Virus record (IMG/VR): IMGVR_UViG_3300035695_000233
Location: 1 to 23,058 of that record
DNA: 23,058 bases
Direction: 5' to 3' (one strand)
DNA from: a virus
Shown: positions 2,997 through 10,361 of the stretch, in pieces
Layout of the letters: every line of letters begins with the position of its first letter
How positions within the stretch are numbered: the first letter of the stretch is position 1
The notes under the pieces: generated by a model
Told to the model about the DNA's origin: nothing
Database searches by the model: none
What the model saw: the letters and a program-made list of their open reading frames with translations, nothing else
Made by a program: the position numbers and the translations under genes

Positions 2997-3709
2997 CAGC
3001 CCCTCCGTCCGGCAAGGGCCTTGCCCCGGCCGTTCAGCGCCGCGACGACGCGCTTCGACGCGGCCTCATCTTCGTCCGCTAACTCGGCGAACCGCGCCTG
3101 GTTATCGGGGTTGGCGAAGAAGGCATCGATGTCGGCCCTAGAGGAGAAGACGTCACCTTCCAGGGCGCTGAAGACGCCATGCATCCACCGCACGGCCGCG
3201 CTGACGTCGGCGTCTTCGCGGTCCCCGGGGAATCCATCGTCGGAAGGTCCGAAGCTACGCGTCTCCTCGCGGCCCCGCTGAGCCGCGGCCGGGGCCTGCC
3301 TGGCTCGGTCCTGCGACCGAAGCGGCTTGACCGTGTAGGGCTTGCGGTTGGCGCGCGTGGTGGTCAGCGCGAAGGTCACATCACGCTCGATGTGACTCAT
3401 GTGGCTTATCCGGGTGCCCCCAACGGCCACGCCCCCGAACATCACCTTGTCGTCGCGGTAGAGCGTCATGCTGCGCCCGGCGTAGACGTTGGCGTCCGGC
3501 CCCCAGACATGGACCAGCACCCGGCGCATCGACTTGCCCGGCTTGTAGGGTTTTCCGTTGTCGCCTTCGAAGTGGAGCGCGACCGGCTGCTCGTCGCCGG
3601 TGAGCGACACCTTCGTGAGCGTGATGGTGCGCGGCCCGCCGATCAGATCGTCAGAGTTGAGCTGGTCGCTCTTCGGCACGATGGTGTCGAGCATCGTGAT
3701 GGCGTTCAT
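2996..3709 (-). CDS. Unknown protein paired with the YqaJ exonuclease
   Basis: A 237-residue protein beginning MNAITMLDTIVPKSDQLNSD, preceded by AGGAG; the longer in-frame reading to 3913 lacks coding character, so 3709 (ATGA overlap with the exonuclease stop) is the start. Residues about 20-130 look beta-rich (TITLTKVSLTGDEQPVALHF, RRVLVHVWGP, RSMTLYRDDKVMFGGVAVGG), compatible with an OB-like or similar sheet. After a basic, Pro/Gln-rich linker comes a helical, acidic C-terminal part (residues about 175-237). I recognise the type from alphaproteobacterial phages but know no assigned function. Location directly after a YqaJ nuclease, where phages usually keep an annealing protein or SSB, suggests a recombination partner. 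Confidence 0.8.
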   Translation of the reverse strand: MNAITMLDTIVPKSDQLNSDDLIGGPRTITLTKVSLTGDEQPVALHFEGDNGKPYKPGKSMRRVLVHVWGPDANVYAGRSMTLYRDDKVMFGGVAVGGTRISHMSHIERDVTFALTTTRANRKPYTVKPLRSQDRARQAPAAAQRGREETRSFGPSDDGFPGDREDADVSAAVRWMHGVFSALEGDVFSSRADIDAFFANPDNQARFAELADEDEAASKRVVAALNGRGKALAGRRG

Positions 3710-4404
3710 AGGTAGATCTCCTGTTCGATCCGCCGCTTCGTTGCGATGAACCGGCGGGTGGCGAGGGCCTCCTTGAAGGCCTCCATCTTCTGGGCGATGC
3801 GCTCCTCGAAGGCCGTCGCAGCCTTGATGATCGCGTCTTGGATTTCGGGGTCTGGCAGGACGCGCATCACGGCCATGGGAAGGCCGGCGCTGTACGAGAT
3901 GAAGTCGCACCACTTCCGGCCGGACACGAGCATTCCGGTCTGCACCTGGATGACATGTTCATCCGGCACGGCGTTGTTGATGATCGTCTCGACCTGGAAC
4001 TTGTGGCGCCGGCTCTTGCTCTCGATCAGGCCGTCGTCACCCACCAGGCCGTCGGGCGAAAACCCCAGCGTGAAGCCGAAGCTGTCGTTCGTGATGAAGC
4101 CACCGTCGGTGACGGGCGCGTAGTTGGCCGCGTAGAGCAGCTTCGCGTCGATCTCATCCTCATGCCCGCGGAGCATGTCGAAGCCCTGGTAGCTCTCCTC
4201 GACGTAGCCGGTGACGCGCTGGGCGAGCAGTTCGAACAGATGGGTGCGCTCCTTTTCGTTGCTGGCGACCTTGAGCGTCGGCGTGATGATCAGTTTCATC
4301 TCGCTTGCGGTCAGCAGGCCGCAGCGGGCCTGGAGCCAGTCACCACTCCCCTGGACGAGGTCATGGTGGTACTTCGGACCACTGGGCTGGGCGAAGCCGT
4401 CCAT
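3706..4404 (-). CDS. YqaJ / lambda-exonuclease-like viral recombinase
   Basis: A 232-residue nuclease of the YqaJ family (PD-(D/E)XK fold), which degrades one strand of duplex DNA ends so that an annealing protein can recombine them. Visible motifs: GSGDWLQARCGLLTASE near the N-terminus, a helix with Glu (GHEDEIDAKLLYA), GFSPDG carrying the metal-binding Asp, IESKS carrying the Glu and Lys of the catalytic core, and HVIQVQTGMLVSG. Length matches phage homologues. Start taken at ATG 4404 in a TGATG overlap; a GTG one codon upstream at 4407 is possible. No recognisable RecT, Beta or Erf gene is next to it; the partner is probably the unknown gene at 2996-3709. Confidence 0.92.
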   Translation of the reverse strand: MDGFAQPSGPKYHHDLVQGSGDWLQARCGLLTASEMKLIITPTLKVASNEKERTHLFELLAQRVTGYVEESYQGFDMLRGHEDEIDAKLLYAANYAPVTDGGFITNDSFGFTLGFSPDGLVGDDGLIESKSRRHKFQVETIINNAVPDEHVIQVQTGMLVSGRKWCDFISYSAGLPMAVMRVLPDPEIQDAIIKAATAFEERIAQKMEAFKEALATRRFIATKRRIEQEIYL

Positions 4405-4682
4405 CACGATCTCCCCGCGATGGCTTCGAGCGTCTGAGCCCGCGCGTCCACGTCCTCGGCGAACCGGCGGGCCAGGTCCCGAACTCCGGGCGCAAAGGCG
4501 TCGCCACCCGCGGCGATCTCGGCGGCTAGGACCCGCGCGGCGCCCATGGCTTCGGACAGCGCCATGACGTGCTCGTGGGCCAGGGTCCGGATCTCGGCTT
4601 GCAGCGCCCGGATATGCTCGATGCGCGAAGGACCCACGGCCGACGTCTCGTCGGGCCCGACAAGGTGCAGCGGCGGCTTCAC
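4404..4682 (-). CDS. Hypothetical helical protein, 92 aa
   Basis: From a GTG at 4682 the product begins VKPPLHLVGPDETSAVG and then is almost wholly helical and alanine-rich (IRALQAEIRTLAHEHVMALS, ARRFAEDVDARAQTLEAIAG), possibly a short coiled coil. The GTG overlaps the stop of the 38-residue membrane peptide gene (GTGA), so I prefer it to a longer in-frame reading whose N-terminus is a basic shadow of that gene. It sits directly before the exonuclease, so it may belong to the recombination set, but no function can be assigned. Confidence 0.7.
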   Translation of the reverse strand: MKPPLHLVGPDETSAVGPSRIEHIRALQAEIRTLAHEHVMALSEAMGAARVLAAEIAAGGDAFAPGVRDLARRFAEDVDARAQTLEAIAGRS

Positions 4683-4795: not shown

Positions 4796-5013
4796 GTGCG
4801 GCTCCTCAGGGCATCGTCGATGAGGCTGACGAGGCGCTTGGCCTCGGGGTCGGCGGGGTGATCCAGGTCGGCGATGAAGGCGCGAGCCGCGATCAGCGCG
4901 GCGTCCTTGCGGGCGTGGGGTTCAAGGCCTTGGCGGATCAGCTGGCGGGTCGTGGCGATGGCGCCCAGGTTGATGGGCGAGCGCCGGGCGCGGGAGGGGG
5001 AGCCGTCGGGCAT
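4792..5013 (-). CDS. Hypothetical protein, 73 aa
   Basis: A small basic protein starting MPDGSPSRARRSPINLGAIA and then helical (TRQLIRQGLEPHARKDAALI, EAKRLVSLIDDALRSRT). No domain recognised. GGAAGGAGC lies at good distance before the ATG at 5013, which forms TGATG with the methyltransferase stop; a GTG one codon upstream is the alternative. A longer frame to 5163 overlaps the methyltransferase gene and is not believed. Confidence 0.65.
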   Translation of the reverse strand: MPDGSPSRARRSPINLGAIATTRQLIRQGLEPHARKDAALIAARAFIADLDHPADPEAKRLVSLIDDALRSRT

Positions 5014-6416
5014 CACCAACGCTCCTTCCGTCCGATGACGCAGAGGACGGTGTTCACCATCGTCCCGGACTCCTTGAACGAGCCCTCTGGGAGGTCGCGC
5101 CAGTGTCCGCCGCGGCGTTCCATCTCGGCCCGCAGCTGGGCGTGGCGCGTGGTCTCCCGCCACTCCGCGCTGGCCGACATCACCGAGACCAGGATTCCGC
5201 CCGGCTCCAGGAACCGCAGGGCGTGCATGACGTGGTCGACGTCTCGGCCCATGTCGAAGGGCGGGTTCATCACGATCCGGTCGAACAGACCGAGTGTCGC
5301 TGGGGCCTCGTCGAAGAAATCGCGGGCGACCACCTGGGCGAAAGCGCCGGACCGCGCCAATCCGGCGGCGAGGTTGGGTTGGATTTCGACGCAGACCACC
5401 TCGCGGCCCTCGCCGACGGCGGCCAGGGCGATGCGCCCATTGCCCGCCGATGGCTCCAGAACCCGCTTCGTCCCGCGTAGCTGGGCCGCCTGGATCACGT
5501 CTTCGACCACCGCATCCGGCGTCTCGAACAGGCTGAAGTTGCGCGTCGGCATCCGGTTGGGGGCGTGGTGGACATCGGCCGCGTCTGGCCCGGCGCCGAG
5601 GTTGGCGCCGTAGTAGTCGGCCAGCAGCAGGTTCACCCGGTCGACCAGATCATCCCGGCTGAACCACAGGTGGGCGTTGCCGTTCTTGTAGACCTGGACC
5701 TTGAAGTAGTCGCTGTGCGCGGTGTAGGCGGCCGCTCCGAACGCGGAGCCGTTGTGGGCGTCCTTCGCAGCCCTGACGGCAGCGATGATATCGACCCGGT
5801 CTTCGTCCGGCTTCGCCTTACCGTCCAGGACCAGGAAGGTCCGCTCGATGTCGGCCAGGGTGTCGGCGGTGCGGCCGTGGTGGATGTAGCCGTCGCGGTC
5901 GGCGAAGTAGGTCAGGATCACGCGCGACCCGATCTTGAACCCGTCGTGGGACCGAAAGCGGCGATCCAGCTTCGAGAACACGTTGGCGATCCCGCGCTTG
6001 AAGATCATGCCGCTGTCGGCGCGCAGCTGCTCGAACACTTGCCGGCAGGCCTCGGCAGTAACCTCCGGCGGGTCCAGGTCGAGCTGGCGCGAGAACTCGT
6101 CCTTCGCCTGCTTGTCCATCAGGGTGGCCAACTGGGTCACCCGCAGGAGGTGCAGCCAGATCGCCTTGTCGAGCGGCTTCCGGACATCGCCCAGGAAGGC
6201 CTCAAGCTGGTCGCTCCGGAAATCCCGGTTGCGGTTGGTGAGCTCGGGCAGGCTGCTGTGGCCACCGCCGGCCAGCACCGCAGCTGTCCCGGCGTCGCGC
6301 ACGACGTTCCAGGCCGAGGCGTAGAGCTCAAGGCACCGGTTGCGGTTGGCCACGATCTCGTCGATCGAGGCGCGCAGGGCCGGAGCCTGGGCGGAAGGCA
6401 TGTCGGAGCCGTCCAT
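5013..6416 (-). CDS. DUF4942 plus class I DNA methyltransferase
   Basis: A 467-residue two-domain protein. Residues roughly 90-280 match the DUF4942 module found in phage and plasmid methyltransferases (IFKRGIANVFSKLDRRFRSH, a FKIGSRVILTYF strand, HLWFSRDDLVDRVN). Residues about 300-467 form a SAM-dependent methyltransferase: PTRNFSLFETPD, the SAM-binding VLEPSAGNGRIALAAV (about 316-331), CVEIQPNLA, and catalytic NPPF (about 383-386), which indicates amino-group methylation, probably N6-adenine. It likely modifies phage DNA against host restriction or sensing; the recognition site is not deducible. No restriction partner is adjacent. The ATG at 6416 forms TGATG with the preceding stop. Confidence 0.88.
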   Translation of the reverse strand: MDGSDMPSAQAPALRASIDEIVANRNRCLELYASAWNVVRDAGTAAVLAGGGHSSLPELTNRNRDFRSDQLEAFLGDVRKPLDKAIWLHLLRVTQLATLMDKQAKDEFSRQLDLDPPEVTAEACRQVFEQLRADSGMIFKRGIANVFSKLDRRFRSHDGFKIGSRVILTYFADRDGYIHHGRTADTLADIERTFLVLDGKAKPDEDRVDIIAAVRAAKDAHNGSAFGAAAYTAHSDYFKVQVYKNGNAHLWFSRDDLVDRVNLLLADYYGANLGAGPDAADVHHAPNRMPTRNFSLFETPDAVVEDVIQAAQLRGTKRVLEPSAGNGRIALAAVGEGREVVCVEIQPNLAAGLARSGAFAQVVARDFFDEAPATLGLFDRIVMNPPFDMGRDVDHVMHALRFLEPGGILVSVMSASAEWRETTRHAQLRAEMERRGGHWRDLPEGSFKESGTMVNTVLCVIGRKERW

Positions 6417-6598: not shown

Positions 6599-6891
6599 GC
6601 TGGCGCTCCGCCGCTGGCCCGCCATTGGCCGACCAGCTTCTTCGCGCGCTTCTTCCCGACGCCCATGAAGGTGCGGAGGTAGAAGGCCGCTTGAGCCCGA
6701 TGCGCGCCTGGAAGGTCGTTCAGGTACTCGCGGCATTCTTCGTCGGTCGAGACGAGATCGGCGCCGTTGCGGTAAGCTTCGGCCTCAGCGCCAGTCATGG
6801 GCCAGCCGGGGCCGTCTTCGCCGTCGAAGTTCCACTCGGCGGTTTCGCAATCCATCGTGCCGTCGAGCATCATGTCGGCTATTTCGCCCAT
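6595..6891 (-). CDS. Hypothetical protein, 98 aa
   Basis: It begins MGEIADMMLDGTMDCETAEW, an opening I associate with small phage early proteins of unknown role. The acidic N-terminal half contains DGEDGPGWPMTGAEAEAYR; the C-terminal half is basic and helical (FYLRTFMGVGKKRAKKLVGQ), a possible nucleic-acid contact resembling a helix-hairpin-helix turn (GVGKKRAKKL). Start at ATG 6891 in TGATG; a GTG at 6894 is the alternative. Coupled at both ends. Confidence 0.7.
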   Translation of the reverse strand: MGEIADMMLDGTMDCETAEWNFDGEDGPGWPMTGAEAEAYRNGADLVSTDEECREYLNDLPGAHRAQAAFYLRTFMGVGKKRAKKLVGQWRASGGAPA

Positions 6892-7115
6892 CACGCAGCC
6901 CTCGCCGCGAGCGCCACCGGCTCAGCGTCGCCCTTAAGCGCCGCCTCCAGCAGGTCGATCTCGCGGCGGATTTGGGCGATACCGAGCGTGGCCGAGAAGC
7001 CATGGACCGAGCTCTCGGTCTCGGCGAACCTGGCGGCGTCCATCGCCAGCGTCAGCGCCAACTTGGCGGCGTGCTGTGCACAGACGATCACCTGAAGCTT
7101 GCGGTCGGCGTTCAT
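6891..7115 (-). CDS. Hypothetical helical protein, 74 aa
   Basis: Starts MNADRKLQVIVCAQHAAKLA and is helical and alanine-rich, ending EAALKGDAEPVALAARAA. No domain recognised. The ATG at 7115 is part of TGATG with the preceding stop (GTG at 7118 also possible). The longer frame to 7250 gives a basic low-complexity N-terminus typical of a shadow of the neighbouring gene and was not used. Confidence 0.65.
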   Translation of the reverse strand: MNADRKLQVIVCAQHAAKLALTLAMDAARFAETESSVHGFSATLGIAQIRREIDLLEAALKGDAEPVALAARAA

Positions 7116-7528
7116 CACGCTGCGACCAACTGGAGGGCCGCCACGTAGTCGGCGAGCGCGGCACGCGCCTGATCGGCGGCGGGGCCTTCCATCTCGCCCA
7201 GAAGCTTGGCGGCGAAGTGGTGGTTCGTGTCCAGGCCACGGTTGCGGCACGACAGCAGGGTGTCGTCGCCAGTCGCCTCGTAGATCAGCCGGGCCGCCGT
7301 AGTGAACCGGCCATCAGGCGTCAGTTCCCAGGCCAGCCTCTCGTCGAACTCGCGTTCCAGCCGGGCCGCTACAGCGTCGACGTCCTGAACTTCGACGTGG
7401 CGCGAGGTCGTCAGGCCGGACCAGCAGACGCCCCTGGGTTGGACGGCCGCATTGTGGGCGATCTGGCCAGCGACGATCTCGCTGGCCTTGGCTTGGAAGT
7501 CGGGGCGGGGTTGGGTGGTGGAAGGCAT
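7115..7528 (-). CDS. Hypothetical protein, first gene of the early-left operon
   Basis: A 137-residue protein starting MPSTTQPRPDFQAKASEIVA with RLEREFDERLAWELTPDGRF, ARLIYEATGDDTLLSCRNRG and a helical C-terminus ending ADYVAALQLVAA. I do not recognise a domain. It is the first gene after promoter PL, with GGAG placed before the ATG, so it is the most strongly and earliest expressed protein of the left operon. First genes of phage early operons often encode host-takeover or anti-defence proteins; here this is only inference from position. Confidence 0.75.
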   Translation of the reverse strand: MPSTTQPRPDFQAKASEIVAGQIAHNAAVQPRGVCWSGLTTSRHVEVQDVDAVAARLEREFDERLAWELTPDGRFTTAARLIYEATGDDTLLSCRNRGLDTNHHFAAKLLGEMEGPAADQARAALADYVAALQLVAA

Positions 7529-7551
7529 CGGGTGGCTCCGTTTGTGGAACC

Positions 7552-7580
7552 ACTATGCGAAAACCTCACAGAAGCGTCAA
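7552..7580 (-). promoter_or_regulatory. Early-left promoter PL
   Basis: On the minus strand TTGACG (7580-7575) is followed after exactly 17 bases by CATAGT (7557-7552), a good sigma70 arrangement (5/6 and 4/6 matches). Transcription would begin near 7545, about 17 bases before the first gene's ATG at 7528, leaving room for its GGAG. The -35 lies inside CCTCATTGACG, the 11-mer also found at PR. Confidence 0.65.
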
Positions 7581-7612
7581 TGAGGAATATGCATAATTAT
7601 GCGATATTCTCA
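7564..7612. promoter_or_regulatory. Operator cluster at PL with a 12-bp perfect palindrome
   Basis: CCTCA at 7564-7568 faces TGAGG at 7581-7585 across the PL -35 region, and another CTCA lies at 7609-7612. Next to them GCATAATTATGC (7591-7602) is a perfect palindrome, flanked by AATAT (7586-7590) and ATATT (7604-7608). The TGAG/CTCA elements recur around PR and are the best candidates for repressor or Cro half-sites. The AT-rich palindrome does not recur there and may bind a different regulator or act as an UP element. Confidence 0.45.
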
Positions 7613-7639
7613 CTGTCGACATCCCCTCCCTAACGCAGG

Positions 7640-7657
7640 CACCCGCCGAAGCGGGTG
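7640..7657 (-). terminator. Hairpin ending the repressor operon
   Basis: CACCCGC and GCGGGTG form a 7-bp stem; read on the minus strand the loop is TTCG closed by C-G, the very stable UUCG tetraloop. It lies about 35 bases beyond the last gene of the repressor operon (stop at 7692). No clear T-tract follows, so termination efficiency is uncertain. The rest of 7529-7691 holds PL and its operators and no gene. Confidence 0.5.
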
Positions 7658-7691
7658 GGATGCGCGTGACGCTTAGCAGGGAAGATATGGG

Positions 7692-7997
7692 TTAGCTGTC
7701 GCGTCGGCCGCCCTGCCGGGCGAATTCGGTAAAGGCCCGGATTTCTTCTCGGAGACGATCCAGATCGAGGCTTGAGCCCGCCGCGCGCGCCTTGTTCCAC
7801 GCGTCCAAATTCACCCTGGCGCGCCGTCCCATCCAACCCTTGCAGGCTCGACAGTAGACCATTGCCATGGCCCCAATATCCTCAAGGTCGTCCTGTTCGT
7901 AACCGCCACACGACTTGCAGATCAGTTCGTACCTCGGCCAGTTGTCGACCACGACACCAAGGAGAACGACCTCATAGTCGACCATCCTGCGGCCCAT
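7692..7997 (-). CDS. Zinc-ribbon protein of the lysogeny operon, 101 aa
   Basis: The product has two CxxC knuckles, ICKSCGG (Cys27/30) and VYCRACKGW (Cys49/52), spaced as in a zinc ribbon, preceded by a hydrophobic strand (YEVVLLGVVVDNW) and followed by a charged helical tail (DLDRLREEIRAFTEFARQGG). The ATG at 7997 overlaps the previous TAA (TAATG); MVDYEV at 7985 is an alternative start. As the last gene of the repressor transcript it would be expressed in the lysogen. Function unknown; position suggests lysogenic conversion or immunity cargo. Confidence 0.65.
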   Translation of the reverse strand: MGRRMVDYEVVLLGVVVDNWPRYELICKSCGGYEQDDLEDIGAMAMVYCRACKGWMGRRARVNLDAWNKARAAGSSLDLDRLREEIRAFTEFARQGGRRDS

Positions 7998-8455
7998 TAG
8001 AAGTCGTCCGACACCGGGCCGCTAATTACGCATGCCGCGATGCGGGTGGACTGGTTCCTCATGTCCAGCAGGGCGCCGCCCGGATAGTTCATCGCCGAAT
8101 ATGCCGAGCGATCGGTGGCGACCTCGAACTCGCCATGGCTGATGCGGAACCGCCCGTCCTTAGCCTCAAAGGTGATGGTGGTCCTGTAATTCAGACCAAA
8201 CATCCCCGAGCCCTTCCAGGCGTTTCGGGCCTGCACGAAGCCGGCCTCGACATCGCTGGAGACTATGGTGTTGGCGGTGGTGAGCCCGGAGGTCGCGAAT
8301 TTGGGAATACAGACCAGCGCGCGCTTGGCGAGAGTCTGGTGGTCTTGGCCCTCAGCCGGGAAAACCTCTTGGACCGAATGAACCTCTTCCATCGCCCGCG
8401 CCGCGCCGGGAGCGGCTATCGCCAGGGCCACGATCAAAGCCGGCGCGCGAGCCAT
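7997..8455 (-). CDS. Secreted DUF4468-like protein of the lysogeny operon
   Basis: A 152-residue protein with a clear signal peptide (MARAPALIVALAIAAPGAAR, likely cleavage after ARA at about residue 21). The mature part contains YRTTITFEAKDGRFRISHGE, the beta hairpin pattern of DUF4468 (TBP-like fold) proteins; that family call is tentative. Two cysteines (in ALVCIP and AACVIS) could form a periplasmic disulfide. Start at 8455 is preceded by GGGGAGA and lies 22 bases inside the repressor gene, so it is co-transcribed with the repressor and should be made during lysogeny. An exported protein there could alter the cell surface or exclude other phages; this is inference. Confidence 0.7.
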   Translation of the reverse strand: MARAPALIVALAIAAPGAARAMEEVHSVQEVFPAEGQDHQTLAKRALVCIPKFATSGLTTANTIVSSDVEAGFVQARNAWKGSGMFGLNYRTTITFEAKDGRFRISHGEFEVATDRSAYSAMNYPGGALLDMRNQSTRIAACVISGPVSDDF

Positions 8456-9141
8456 ACAGGTCTCCCCATGATTGTGACCTCCTCCGGGTCCGCCTCATCA
8501 TCGGAATAGGCTGGGTTATTGGAGAAAATGCGCAACTTCCCCGTGCGCCGGATTATCTCGACGTTCTTCAGCACATAGCCGTCATCGAACCAGAGGGCGA
8601 AGGCGCCGGGCTGGCGCGGGTTCGTGTCGCGGCGGTCTATGACAACCTGGTCGCCATGCATGAACCCCTTGCCAGTCTGAGGATTGAACATGCTGTCGCC
8701 GCGCAGGTTTAGGATCAGGAGATCTGAAGGCTGCGCTCGAAGTTCCTGGCTTACCAGGCTGCGCGGCATGAGCGCGGTTTCGGGGTCAGCGTCCCCCGAG
8801 CCGCCACCACCCAAGCCGGCGTGGGTCGGCAACACCTCGACGGCGACATAATCGATCATGGGGTCGACGTCGGGAAGGTCCGGCGTATTTCCAATATGGG
8901 ACCTAGATGCCATGGCATCGCCGGGTGACGTCGCCGCCAGGTAGGCGCGAATCTTGTCCGCCTCCTTCGCGCTGATGTCGCGCTTCCCCTGGGCCATCCG
9001 GTTCACGATCGCCGCGCTCGTTACGCCCAGAAACCGGGCGAGCGCCGACTGCGAGCGGCCGGGCTTTGCCAGCTCCGCCTTCAGCCAATCCGGATCGATG
9101 CTCAACTGCTCCGCCATCGCGGGAGTAAGCGGAAACCTCAT
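8434..9141 (-). CDS. CI-type repressor with S24 autopeptidase domain
   Basis: A 235-residue phage repressor. Residues about 28-70 form a helix-turn-helix (SQSALARFLGVTSAAIVNRM with AQGKRDISAKEADKIRAYLA). Residues about 95-225 are a LexA/CI-like S24 domain: nucleophile in GDSM (Ser150), general base in YVLKNVE (Lys192), and a likely Ala108-Gly109 self-cleavage site in HAGLGGGG. It should therefore be inactivated through RecA after DNA damage, giving inducible lysogeny. It is divergent from the Cro-like gene, with CTCA repeats between. No Shine-Dalgarno is seen before ATG 9141, but TATAGC ends 7 bases upstream, so the mRNA may be leaderless; ATG 9117 is an alternative start. Confidence 0.9.
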   Translation of the reverse strand: MRFPLTPAMAEQLSIDPDWLKAELAKPGRSQSALARFLGVTSAAIVNRMAQGKRDISAKEADKIRAYLAATSPGDAMASRSHIGNTPDLPDVDPMIDYVAVEVLPTHAGLGGGGSGDADPETALMPRSLVSQELRAQPSDLLILNLRGDSMFNPQTGKGFMHGDQVVIDRRDTNPRQPGAFALWFDDGYVLKNVEIIRRTGKLRIFSNNPAYSDDEADPEEVTIMGRPVWLARRL

Positions 9142-9214
9142 AGGGGAGGCTATAGAGGAAGGCTCACAGGTTATGCCGAAACCTCATTGACGAGTTGTGC
9201 GAATTGCTCATAGG
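9136..9214. promoter_or_regulatory. Divergent immunity region: promoter PR, repressor promoter and CTCA operators
   Basis: PR on the plus strand: TTGACG (9187-9192), 16 bases, CATAGG (9209-9214), inside CCTCATTGACG (9182-9192), the same 11-mer as at PL. For the repressor on the minus strand TATAGC (9154-9149) is a plausible -10 with no clear -35, as expected of an activator-dependent maintenance promoter. Four CTCA elements in the same orientation end at 9140, 9166, 9186 and 9210; two of them are followed by GAG after six bases (CTC-N6-GAG at 9137 and 9183). These are likely repressor/Cro sites. Confidence 0.6.
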
Positions 9215-9222
9215 TTGCGGTC

Positions 9223-9483
9223 ATGACACCCGCATCCGACATCATCGCGCGCTGCGGCGGCTTCAAAACCGTCGCGGATTGGCTTGGCCTCGAACGAACT
9301 GCGGTCCAGCGGTGGACGTATCCAGCCCCTAAGGGGACTGGCGAGCAAATACCGATGAAGCACTGGTCGGTGCTCATAGAGGCCGCTCGCGCTCATGGCG
9401 TCGACGTGACTTTGGCCGAACTGATGCCGGCGGACGTTGCAAGGATCGCGGCTGACGAGGCCGCTGAGCGGTCCGCGGCCTAA
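9223..9483 (+). CDS. Cro-like regulator, carph-isopro domain
   Basis: An 86-residue protein starting TPASDIIARCGGFKTVADWL and continuing GLERTAVQRWTYPAPKGTGE and QIPMKHWSVLIEAARAHG. The 'GG-x-x-x-A-x-W-L-G-V-x-x-x-A-V-x-x-W' pattern is the HTH of the carph-isopro family, which takes the Cro place in many alphaproteobacterial prophages. It is transcribed divergently from the repressor and would repress it to commit to lytic growth. The predicted PR -10 ends 8 bases before the ATG and no Shine-Dalgarno is present, so the transcript is probably leaderless. Confidence 0.85.
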   Translation: MTPASDIIARCGGFKTVADWLGLERTAVQRWTYPAPKGTGEQIPMKHWSVLIEAARAHGVDVTLAELMPADVARIAADEAAERSAA

Positions 9484-9484
9484 G

Positions 9485-9598
9485 ATGCCCCTCCGCTCCA
9501 TCCTGGCCTTCGCCCTCATGGGCTTTGTCGCGGCAGGCTGCGTAGTCGGTGCCGGGTTCTGGCTGGGCGTGCTGGCTCATCGATTGGAGCTGGGGTGA
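9485..9598 (+). CDS. Small single-pass membrane protein, 37 aa
   Basis: A short frame beginning MPLRSILAFALMGFVAAGCV and continuing as a hydrophobic stretch (VGAGFWLGVLAHRLELG). A basic start followed by a helix of about 26 residues with a possible lipobox-like AAGC at residues 16-19 predicts an inner-membrane or lipid-modified peptide. It starts one base after the Cro-like stop, so it is expressed from PR immediately after induction. Function unknown. Confidence 0.55.
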   Translation: MPLRSILAFALMGFVAAGCVVGAGFWLGVLAHRLELG

Positions 9599-9678
9599 TG
9601 AACGGATCATCGACCCAAATGACATCTGAACATGCGCGGCAGGCCGTCGAACAGCCCCCCCGGCCGGCCATGCGTGTC

Positions 9679-9711
9679 TGTGGGGCGGCGCCTCTCCTGG
9701 GCCGCCCCACA
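9679..9711 (+). terminator. Terminator-like hairpin after the Cro-like gene
   Basis: TGTGGGGCGGC (9679-9689) and GCCGCCCCACA (9701-9711) are perfect complements, an 11-bp GC-rich stem with an 11-base loop, followed by GAGTCCCTTTTCCC. This resembles a rho-independent terminator with a weak T-tract and occupies the place of lambda tR1. The replication genes lie beyond it, so read-through or antitermination is expected to matter. Confidence 0.6.
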
Positions 9712-9729
9712 GAGTCCCTTTTCCCGCCG

Positions 9730-9864
9730 TCATGCCCTGCTGAGCACCACGGCCTGAAGATACCGACGGGCGAGCCGCGTCAGCGCCAGCTGGGTGCGGA
9801 GATCCTTTCCATCGCGCGCCGCCAATACTCGACGCGCCGCGGCTACAGCGTTCGTTCCAGCCAT
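9730..9864 (-). CDS. Possible small antisense protein, 44 aa
   Basis: Minus-strand frame starting MAGTNAVAAARRVLAARDGK and continuing DLRTQLALTRLARRYLQAVV, a clean amphipathic helical sequence that looks more protein-like than the plus-strand reading. A purine-rich GGTTGGGGG lies upstream of the ATG. Against it: it opposes the early-right operon, its third-position GC is lower than in neighbouring genes, and no promoter was identified. It occupies the place where lambda makes the antisense oop RNA. Confidence 0.3.
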   Translation of the reverse strand: MAGTNAVAAARRVLAARDGKDLRTQLALTRLARRYLQAVVLSRA

Positions 9865-9944
9865 TCTGGCCCCCAACCTTCGACGGCGGCCAACCTGCAC
9901 CTTGGCGCTAGCGGTCTCATCCGGAAAAGCGCGGGAGCCATCCG

Positions 9945-10361
9945 GTGAACAGGCGCTTCCACGCTCGTCTGGCCCGGCAGTTGATCGAAGCCTGCGGTGG
10001 CCTCGAGGAGGCGATGTCCGTCTGCCGGGTTGGCCGCTCTCAGCTCAGTGACAGTCAGGTCCCGCACGGCGTCGCCTTTCTCCCCGCCGATGTGATCCAT
10101 GACCTGGAGCAGCACTGCGGCCAGACCATCTACAGCCGCGCGCTCTACGAGGCCCGGCCGGCCGCCATTCAAGTCCACGACCTGCGCGAAGAGGTGAGCG
10201 AGGCCACCGAGGCCGTCGCCGATCTGCAGCGCGAGGTCCGTCTCGCCACCCGCGACGGCGTCCTGACCCCAAACGAACAAGAGCGCCTGGCCCGCAAGTA
10301 CGCGGAAGCCGAGGCCCAGCTGCGCGACGTCGGCGCCCTGATCAACGCCGGCAACGGCTGA
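9945..10361 (+). CDS. Probable phage regulator (HTH plus coiled coil), 138 aa
   Basis: From GTG 9945, preceded by GGGAG at 8 bases. Residues 5-60 (ARLARQLIEACGGLEEAMSV, CRVGRSQLSDSQVP, FLPADVIHDLEQHCGQTIYS) have the look of the small HTH regulators that follow Cro in alphaproteobacterial phages, and they occupy the position of lambda cII. Residues 65-135 form a charged helix likely to be a coiled coil for oligomerisation (VHDLREEVSEATEAVADLQR). A CII-like activator of lysogeny is possible, but homology to CII itself is not evident. Confidence 0.75.
   Translation: MNRRFHARLARQLIEACGGLEEAMSVCRVGRSQLSDSQVPHGVAFLPADVIHDLEQHCGQTIYSRALYEARPAAIQVHDLREEVSEATEAVADLQREVRLATRDGVLTPNEQERLARKYAEAEAQLRDVGALINAGNG

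What the first reader, a model, noticed from the sequence alone, without database searches (positions are those of the whole stretch)
7552..9214. Shared 11-mer CCTCATTGACG overlaps the -35 boxes of both early promoters
The identical sequence occurs at 9182-9192 on the plus strand (PR) and 7585-7575 on the minus strand (PL), each followed by a CATAG-type -10 after 16-17 bases. Additional CTCA elements (ends at 9140, 9166, 9210, 7568, 7612) surround them. This defines a two-promoter lambda-like switch and a probable operator. Unusually, the four sites between the divergent genes all face the same way.
Basis: seen in the sequence. Interest (0 to 1): 0.55.

Follow-up and report, generated by a model that had tools for sequence, protein, structure and literature searches.

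The report
Operators of a lambda-like phage switch
The repeated 11 letters are half of a likely repressor-binding site joined to a promoter's -35 box, and they belong to a set of seven such sites around the two early promoters of a temperate phage, an ordinary lambda-style on/off switch whose binding sites can now be read and tested.

Summary
CCTCATTGACG occurs exactly twice in the window, over the -35 boxes of PR and PL, and every listed CTCA is present. As an 11-mer alone it is weak evidence. The strong evidence: each of the seven CTCA words is the right half of a 17-bp dyad, TRTGMGR-NNN-YCKCAYA; the partner TGMG lies at one fixed offset in 7 of 7, against 11 of 111 other CTCA words. The 11-mer is thus the right half of operator O2 fused to the -35 hexamer; O1 covers the -10. 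A matrix from the window's sites, run on three related prophages, puts 13 of 13 hits above 10 bits in the cI-cro gap or one second cluster, the predicted PL. Genes fit the lambda plan: CI-like S24 repressor, Cro, CII-like protein, leftward exonuclease, rightward replication. 'All sites face the same way' is true here but not unusual: lambda's three OL sites do so too, and relatives differ. Best reading: a lambda-type CI/Cro switch, host probably Caulobacteraceae. New member of a known kind; binding untested. Side result: phiLM21-type phages carry paired dyads that may be the operators a 2025 paper did not find.

The parts
8434..9141 (-). cI: CI-like repressor, N-terminal helix-turn-helix and C-terminal S24 peptidase domain with A108-G109, S150, K192
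   Evidence: Pfam Peptidase_S24 2.7e-10; phrog_4 transcriptional repressor 2.1e-21; residues checked; low-confidence model, best Foldseek matches LexA and lambda repressor, none below E 0.001
9223..9483 (+). cro: Cro-like protein, near the carph-isopro domain family
   Evidence: NF046037 2e-9, 37.5 bits against cut-off 38; 41% to phiLM21 Cro-like; model pLDDT 91.6; best fold match Xfaso 1 Cro (E 0.025), N15 and P22 Cro in the top ten, none below E 0.001
9945..10361 (+). CII-like regulator downstream of cro
   Evidence: phrog_101 CII-like activator 1.2e-7; 54% to a gene in L129
9196..9212 (+). OR1: TGTGCGAATTGCTCATA, over the PR -10
   Evidence: leave-one-out 20.7 bits, above every non-site position
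9172..9188 (+). OR2: TATGCCGAAACCTCATT; its right half makes the left part of the 11-mer and overlaps the PR -35
   Evidence: leave-one-out 18.1
9152..9168 (+). OR3: ATAGAGGAAGGCTCACA, the weakest site, overlapping the predicted PRM -10
   Evidence: leave-one-out 8.7, still above every non-site position
9126..9142 (+). OR4: TAAGCGGAAACCTCATA, covering the first possible cI start codon
   Evidence: leave-one-out 20.2
7554..7570 (+). OL1: TATGCGAAAACCTCACA, over the PL -10
   Evidence: leave-one-out 21.7
7579..7595 (-). OL2: TATGCATATTCCTCATT on the - strand; its right half makes the left part of the 11-mer and overlaps the PL -35
   Evidence: leave-one-out 16.2
7598..7614 (+). OL3: TATGCGATATTCTCACT
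   Evidence: leave-one-out 19.6
9187..9214 (+). PR: TTGACG, 16 bases, CATAGG
   Evidence: read in sequence; TTGAC-operator-(-10) layout also in relatives; not listed by the strict promoter scan
7552..7580 (-). PL: TTGACG, 17 bases, CATAGT
   Evidence: the only promoter-like site the scan listed in 7000-9900 (shuffles: mean 0.5)
9149..9154 (-). predicted PRM -10 TATAGC, 7 bases before the ATG at 9141 (possibly leaderless cI mRNA)
   Evidence: sequence reading; TATAGG also 7 bases before an in-frame ATG in L126; inference
9182..9192 (+). the 11-mer at PR
7575..7585 (-). the 11-mer at PL
7115..7528 (-). first leftward open frame after PL, no family match
3706..4407 (-). recombination exonuclease in the leftward (PL) gene set
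   Evidence: phrog_149 8.2e-28

Best explanation
This is the immunity region of a temperate phage with a lambda-type CI/Cro switch. Seven 17-bp dyads (TRTGMGR-NNN-YCKCAYA), four at the cI-cro gap and three before the leftward operon, are the operators. At both PR and PL, O1 lies between -35 and -10 and covers part of the -10, and O2 lies 24 or 25 bp upstream with its right half running into the -35 TTGACG; that fusion is the shared 11-mer. A CI dimer on O1 and O2 would shut both early promoters and hold the prophage silent. OR3 and OR4, on the PRM -10 and the cI start, would let CI and Cro turn cI down. RecA-stimulated self-cleavage of CI would open PR and PL. Shown: genes, sites, their conservation. 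Inferred from lambda: who binds, in what order, with what effect.
For: Dyad partner at one offset in 7 of 7 CTCA against 11 of 111. Each site left out in turn still outscores every non-site position of the window. The window matrix run on three prophages with a homologous CI N-terminal domain and a Cro homolog (L126, L128, L129) gives 4, 4 and 5 hits at 10 bits or more, all 13 in the cI-cro gap or in one second cluster; Markov sequences give 1.35-1.5 per locus anywhere (the cluster bounds were set). The -35/O2 fusion CATTGAC is at PL in 4 of 4 (window, L126, L128, L129) and at PR in 2 of 4. A composite pattern, written after seeing these, occurs in 1 of 390 genomes, once, at the predicted PL of G352: it is specific. 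O1-O2 spacing is 24 and 25 here; lambda's annotated neighbours are 23 and 24 (right), 24 and 20 (left) apart. The core TGCGANNNTCKCA with at most 1 mismatch occurs at three places in the window, all among these sites. Gene content fits.
Against: No binding or transcription data. In relatives not every site is found: L126 OR2 scores only 6.6 bits, L128 has no OR2 and L129 has no O2 at 24 bp in PR. At 8 bits or more L126 has 2 and L128 has 1 hit outside the clusters. With 2 mismatches the core TGCGANNNTCKCA is not enriched in the window (42 matches, shuffles mean 55). Operator type does not follow the CI N-terminal domain strictly: L130 has another N-terminal domain but similar sites. PR is not flagged by the promoter scan. 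The CI model is poor (pLDDT 66.9). The dyad consensus was fitted to these seven sites, so only the leave-one-out and relative tests are independent of it.
Confidence: 0.88

Rival explanations
1. The 11-mer is shared only because both promoters carry a good -35 box (TTGACG) with similar flanks; CTCA words are incidental and there is no operator in it.
For: Six of the eleven letters are the -35 hexamer; 11-mer repeats are frequent in the window and 459 of 19,448 random segment pairs share one.
Against: All seven CTCA words, five of them not in the 11-mer, carry the dyad partner at one offset; the matrix finds two clusters in each of three relatives.
Confidence: 0.06
2. The CTCA words are asymmetric sites bound in a head-to-tail row or by a heteromer, so the repressor does not bind as a symmetric dimer.
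For: All seven CTCA halves read TGAG on the other strand and the partner halves mostly differ from TGAG; four in a row face the same way; asymmetric operators are reported for mycobacteriophage L1 repressor (PMC1934351, start of abstract in a search listing); Caulobacter XRE proteins have a motif with one strong and one weak half-site and heteromers are considered (PMC10688885, passages seen).
Against: Both halves match one half-site; a related phage has a perfect dyad (TGTGCGATAATCGCACA, L083) at the same place; the GAG half changes side between relatives; lambda sites are lopsided too and its OL sites all face one way.
Confidence: 0.05
3. The dyads are bound by Cro alone (or by another phage regulator), CI acting elsewhere.
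For: Cro recognition-helix type and operator type change together by eye in the relatives, and L073 (Cro VQRW as in the window) has sites of up to 20.3 bits with another CI N-terminal domain; L130 keeps similar sites with another CI N-terminal domain.
Against: Two CIs that share the window's C-terminal but not N-terminal domain lack such sites at their switch (L001, L131), and the three with a homologous N-terminal domain have them; in known lambda-type switches both proteins share operators (established knowledge).
Confidence: 0.1

Closest known systems
Phage lambda OR/OL and CI/Cro switch
   Same: Divergent cI and cro, 17-bp lopsided dyads at PR and PL, neighbour spacing about 19-26 bp, CII-like gene, leftward recombination and rightward replication genes, LexA-like CI
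   Different: Four predicted right sites instead of three; a different half-site (TRTGMGR); O2 half fused to the -35; Cro of another sequence family; host group probably Caulobacteraceae; nut sites and N not looked for
Sinorhizobium phage phiLM21 and phiLM21-type loci (same Cro family)
   Same: Cro 41% identical, cI-cro gap with dyads, second cluster past cI
   Different: Half-site is of TCGCTAC type, pairs about 33 bp apart in the cro gap; another CI; operators not found in PMC12429752 (passages seen)
Paracoccus phage vB_PbeS_Pben1
   Same: Annotated CI-like and Cro-like genes, TGCGATNATCGCA dyads near cro and about 1 kb away
   Different: Symmetric GCG half-sites; Cro 34%; annotated CI-like protein of only 153 residues
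Rhizobium phage 16-3 C repressor with oL1, oL2, oR1, oR2
   Same: An alphaproteobacterial phage whose operators are named in print (passage seen in PMC12429752)
   Different: Its operator sequences were not examined here

Membership tests
Lambda-type CI/Cro immunity switch | Divergent CI-like repressor and small Cro-like gene | tested here: met
Lambda-type CI/Cro immunity switch | Related multiple operators at both PR and PL overlapping promoter elements | tested here: met
   by sequence:
Lambda-type CI/Cro immunity switch | PL side has recombination genes; PR side has cro, cII, replication genes | tested here: met
   (gene order only; transcription not tested)
Lambda-type CI/Cro immunity switch | CI with S24 self-cleavage domain and its Ala-Gly, Ser, Lys | tested here: met
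   (residues at 108-109, 150, 192; their roles are inferred, the model is weak)
Lambda-type CI/Cro immunity switch | CI and Cro bind the same operators with different order, CI cooperatively | not testable with these tools
   needs footprinting
Lambda-type CI/Cro immunity switch | N/nut antitermination of early operons | not tested
   not looked for
Lambda-type CI/Cro immunity switch | CII binding repeats TTGC-N6-TTGC (motif recalled) | tested here: not met
   no match on either strand of the window; an accessory feature of lambda's own CII, not of the switch as a class
carph-isopro domain family NF046037 | Score at or above the curated cut-off of 38 bits | tested here: not met
   37.5 bits, E 2e-9, just under the cut-off; so named here as near that family only

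The most novel reading that the evidence does not exclude
Temperate phages of Alphaproteobacteria that share this Cro family carry one operator system split into at least three specificity classes: TRTGMGR (window, L126, L128, with L073), TTGCGATNATCGCAA or like (L063, L068, L069, Paracoccus phage Pben1) and GTTTC/GTAGCGA-ATCGCTAC (phiLM21-type). Cro's recognition helix and the operator change together, and in the window's group one operator half is fused to the -35 hexamer of PL, so repression and promoter strength must evolve together.
Probability: 0.45. Interest if true: 0.5.

Novelty: new member of a known kind. Interest (0 to 1): 0.35.

Why it matters
It gives exact, testable operator sequences for a group of alphaproteobacterial temperate phages whose switches are annotated, where I looked, only as CI-like and Cro-like. 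It also bears on a question left open in print: a 2025 study of phiLM21-like prophages reports no operators identical to those of lambda or 16-3 and considers that some prophages have lost regulation (passages of PMC12429752); phiLM21 itself and eight other loci with its Cro type carry such dyads at cro, and eight of the nine a second cluster. Otherwise the finding is ordinary phage biology.

Tried and rejected
Scanning viral contigs for the 11-mer plus CATAG gave 51 stretches; tblastn of CI and Cro against them found a relative in 0 of 51, so they look like chance matches. A composite pattern gave one viral stretch, L132; profile searches with the CI and Cro alignments found nothing in it, while the same searches find both genes in the window and in L063: chance. 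First ideas for the dyad were dropped: AACCTCAYAGGTT has no exact match on either strand (with a following CTCA), and CTC-N6-GAG fitted only part of the sites by eye; the offset scan shows a single peak. No phage DNA resembles 6800-10000. Searches for close relatives by CI, its N-terminal 63 residues or Cro alone gave one viral locus (L001), nothing or weak hits. No PDB relative of CI by sequence; for Cro only weak unrelated hits. TTGC-N6-TTGC repeats: none. Literature searches: with passages seen; in their listings I saw no paper describing these operators. That covers one open library and eight word searches only.

Rows dropped: L070 (phiLM21 again, as L002) and L066, L071, L076, L078, L079 (same cro-gap sequence as L063, L064, L075, L003, L065) were not counted apart; L080-L082 matched the Cro search but show no cI-cro layout and were left out; L060, L061, L063, L068, L069, L073 and L003 are of other operator types and are not in the nine phiLM21-type loci. 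In L061 the matrix finds no site at cro.

Full report
WHAT IS THERE. The window is a 23,058-base virus record for which no host is shown. CCTCATTGACG occurs exactly twice, at 9182-9192(+) and 7585-7575(-), with TTGACG as its last six letters. CATAGG follows after 16 bases at PR and CATAGT after 17 at PL. The genes around them are a CI-like S24 repressor (8434-9141, -), a Cro-like protein (9223-9483, +), a CII-like protein (9945-10361, +), a leftward set with a recombination exonuclease and a rightward set with ribonucleotide reductase, thymidylate synthase, DNA primase, DnaB-like helicase and a replication protein.

IS IT MORE THAN CHANCE. The 11-mer alone is modest evidence: the window holds 466 direct and 448 inverted 11-mer pairs, and 459 of 19,448 random segment pairs of the size of the two gaps share one. 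The dyad is the strong evidence. For the seven CTCA words (five + and one - in the two gaps, and the one at 9137 at the cI start), the word TGMG (at least 3 of 4 letters) starts exactly 9 bases upstream in 7 of 7, against 11 of 111 other CTCA words; at the other offsets from 4 to 20 the best is 3 of 7. The seven 17-mers read TRTGMGR-NNN-YCKCAYA in consensus. The ambiguous letters were chosen after seeing the sites; but when each site is left out of the matrix in turn it still scores above every non-site position of the window, the weakest (OR3, 9152-9168) with 8.7 bits. The core TGCGANNNTCKCA with two mismatches is not enriched in the window (42 matches, shuffles mean 55), but its matches with at most one mismatch are at three places only, 7556, 7600 and 9198, all in these sites.

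RELATIVES. An alignment of Cro with those of phiLM21 and Pben1 found 6 loci in genome contigs and 17 in viral contigs. The genome of one, a Caulobacter (L060, G001), served as centre for 390 genomes of its family: 204 have some CI match at E 0.001 or better, most of the listed ones to the S24 domain only, and 9 have a Cro match. Three prophages have both a homologous CI N-terminal domain and a homologous Cro: G335 (CI residues 11-87 68%, Cro 56%), G352 (residues 12-87 53%, Cro 51%) and G001 (CI 40%, Cro 46%). The symmetric matrix from the window's seven sites, run on 14-16 kb of each (L126, L128, L129), gave 4, 4 and 5 hits of 10 bits or more. All 13 lie in the cI-cro gap or in one second cluster (bounds set); Markov sequences give 1.35 to 1.5 hits per locus; at 8 bits or more 2, 1 and 0 hits lie elsewhere. 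The second clusters sit at a TTGAC promoter-like stretch in front of an ATG and are the predicted PL of each. Two records that share the CI C-terminal domain but not the N-terminal domain lack such sites at their switch (L131; L001, whose best hit of 9.9 bits lies about 2 kb from its cI gene). A third, L130, has an unlike N-terminal domain but does have similar sites in both clusters (5 of 6 hits at 8 bits or more); this counts against a strict rule that operators follow that domain.

ANATOMY. At PR and PL the order is O2, -35, O1, -10. O2's right half runs into the -35: CATTGAC at window PR and PL, L126 PR and PL, L128 PL and L129 PL; not at L128 PR and L129 PR. O1 lies in the spacer and its right half is part of the -10. 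O1 and O2 start 24 bp apart at PR and 25 at PL; all neighbour spacings in the window are 26, 20, 24 (right) and 25, 19 (left); lambda's annotated operators start 23 and 24 (right) and 24 and 20 (left) apart. A composite pattern of this layout, written after seeing the relatives, occurs once in 390 genomes, at the predicted PL of G352; it is too strict by a letter for the PLs of G335 and G001. In viral contigs a like pattern hit one unrelated stretch. So the shared 11-mer is an operator half fused to a -35 hexamer.

ORIENTATION. In the window each site has a TGAG half; the other half is TGCG in three and AGCG, TGCC, TGCA and AGAG in one each. All four right sites face +; of the left sites two face + and one -. 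In relatives the site over the PR -10 has GAG upstream (L126, L128), is symmetric (L129), or is like the window (L073). Lambda's three left sites all face one way, and two of its three right sites agree. The direction is thus not unusual and not conserved.

HOW IT MOST LIKELY WORKS. By the established model of lambda: CI dimers on O1 and O2 of both promoters keep PL and PR off in the lysogen; Cro made from PR takes over during lytic growth; OR3 and OR4, over the PRM -10 (TATAGC, 9154-9149) and the cI start, limit cI. A leaderless cI mRNA is possible: the ATG at 9141 lies 7 bases after that -10, as in L126; I did not see the same in L128. An alternative ATG eight codons on cannot be excluded. 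Residues that fit self-cleavage are present. These steps are inferred; only the sites and genes are shown.

PROTEIN FOLDS. The Cro model is good (pLDDT 91.6); its best PDB match is Xfaso 1 Cro (E 0.025, probability 1.00), with N15 and P22 Cro in the top ten, none below E 0.001. The CI model is weak (66.9); its best matches are LexA and lambda repressor (E 0.0024 and more), and XRE-type proteins for the N-terminal part.

A SIDE RESULT. In nine phiLM21-type loci a core (ATCGCTAC in five, ATCGATAC in two, TTCGATAC and TTCGCTAC in one each, chosen by eye from the cro gap of each) was counted over the whole locus: 3 to 6 hits, 0.2-0.25 expected. In 8 of 9 two hits 32-34 bp apart stand at cro (L062 has one), and in 8 of 9 there is a second cluster 0.8-3.3 kb on the cI side (L065 has none; L062 also has one lone hit elsewhere). 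PMC12429752 (passages seen) reports no operators identical to those of lambda or 16-3 in phiLM21-like prophages; it studied other prophages, and only phiLM21 itself is shared for certain with my nine loci. PMC5537653 and PMC6536676 do not use the word operator (term counts and passages). In the Cro alignment the stretch of the third helix (residues 25-31 here) is RTAVQRW, RNAVQRW or RSAVQRW in the window's group, ISTVQRW in L073, which has nearly the window's sites, ETRVRRW, VSRVRRW or VSRIHRW in the TTGCGATNATCGCAA group and mostly RTRVSNW in the phiLM21 group. So Cro and operator type change together by eye; no statistic was made.

VERDICT. A lambda-type CI/Cro switch with newly read operators; a new member of a known kind.

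Noticed in passing
L002 (phiLM21) at -1353, -1320, -49 and -16 from cro; also L062, L064, L067, L072, L074, L075, L077: Dyads with ATCGCTAC, ATCGATAC or TTCGATAC halves at cro and in a second cluster past cI: likely operators of phiLM21-type phages.
   Followed up: partly
L126 and L127 (G335:C1, about 22 kb and 67 kb): Two copies 99.98% identical over 15.1 kb lie 45.1 kb apart in one genome, which looks like a tandem double prophage.
   Followed up: no
window 8434-9141, L001, L130, L131: CI proteins with a similar C-terminal domain carry different N-terminal domains (L001 matches 77% over residues 81-235 only; alignment), which looks like domain swapping in the repressor.
   Followed up: partly
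window 7997-8455 (-): An open frame just downstream of cI on the same strand whose first residues look like a signal peptide; it could be made in the lysogen. L126 and L128 also have a small open frame between cI and PL, but on the strand opposite to cI.
   Followed up: no
window 9126-9142 and L130 7629-7645: The operator over the cI start is itself read as codons (MRFPL here, VRFPH in L130), so the operator shapes the repressor's first residues if that start is used.
   Followed up: no
window 5013-6416 (-): A DUF4942 plus methyltransferase protein in the leftward gene set.
   Followed up: no
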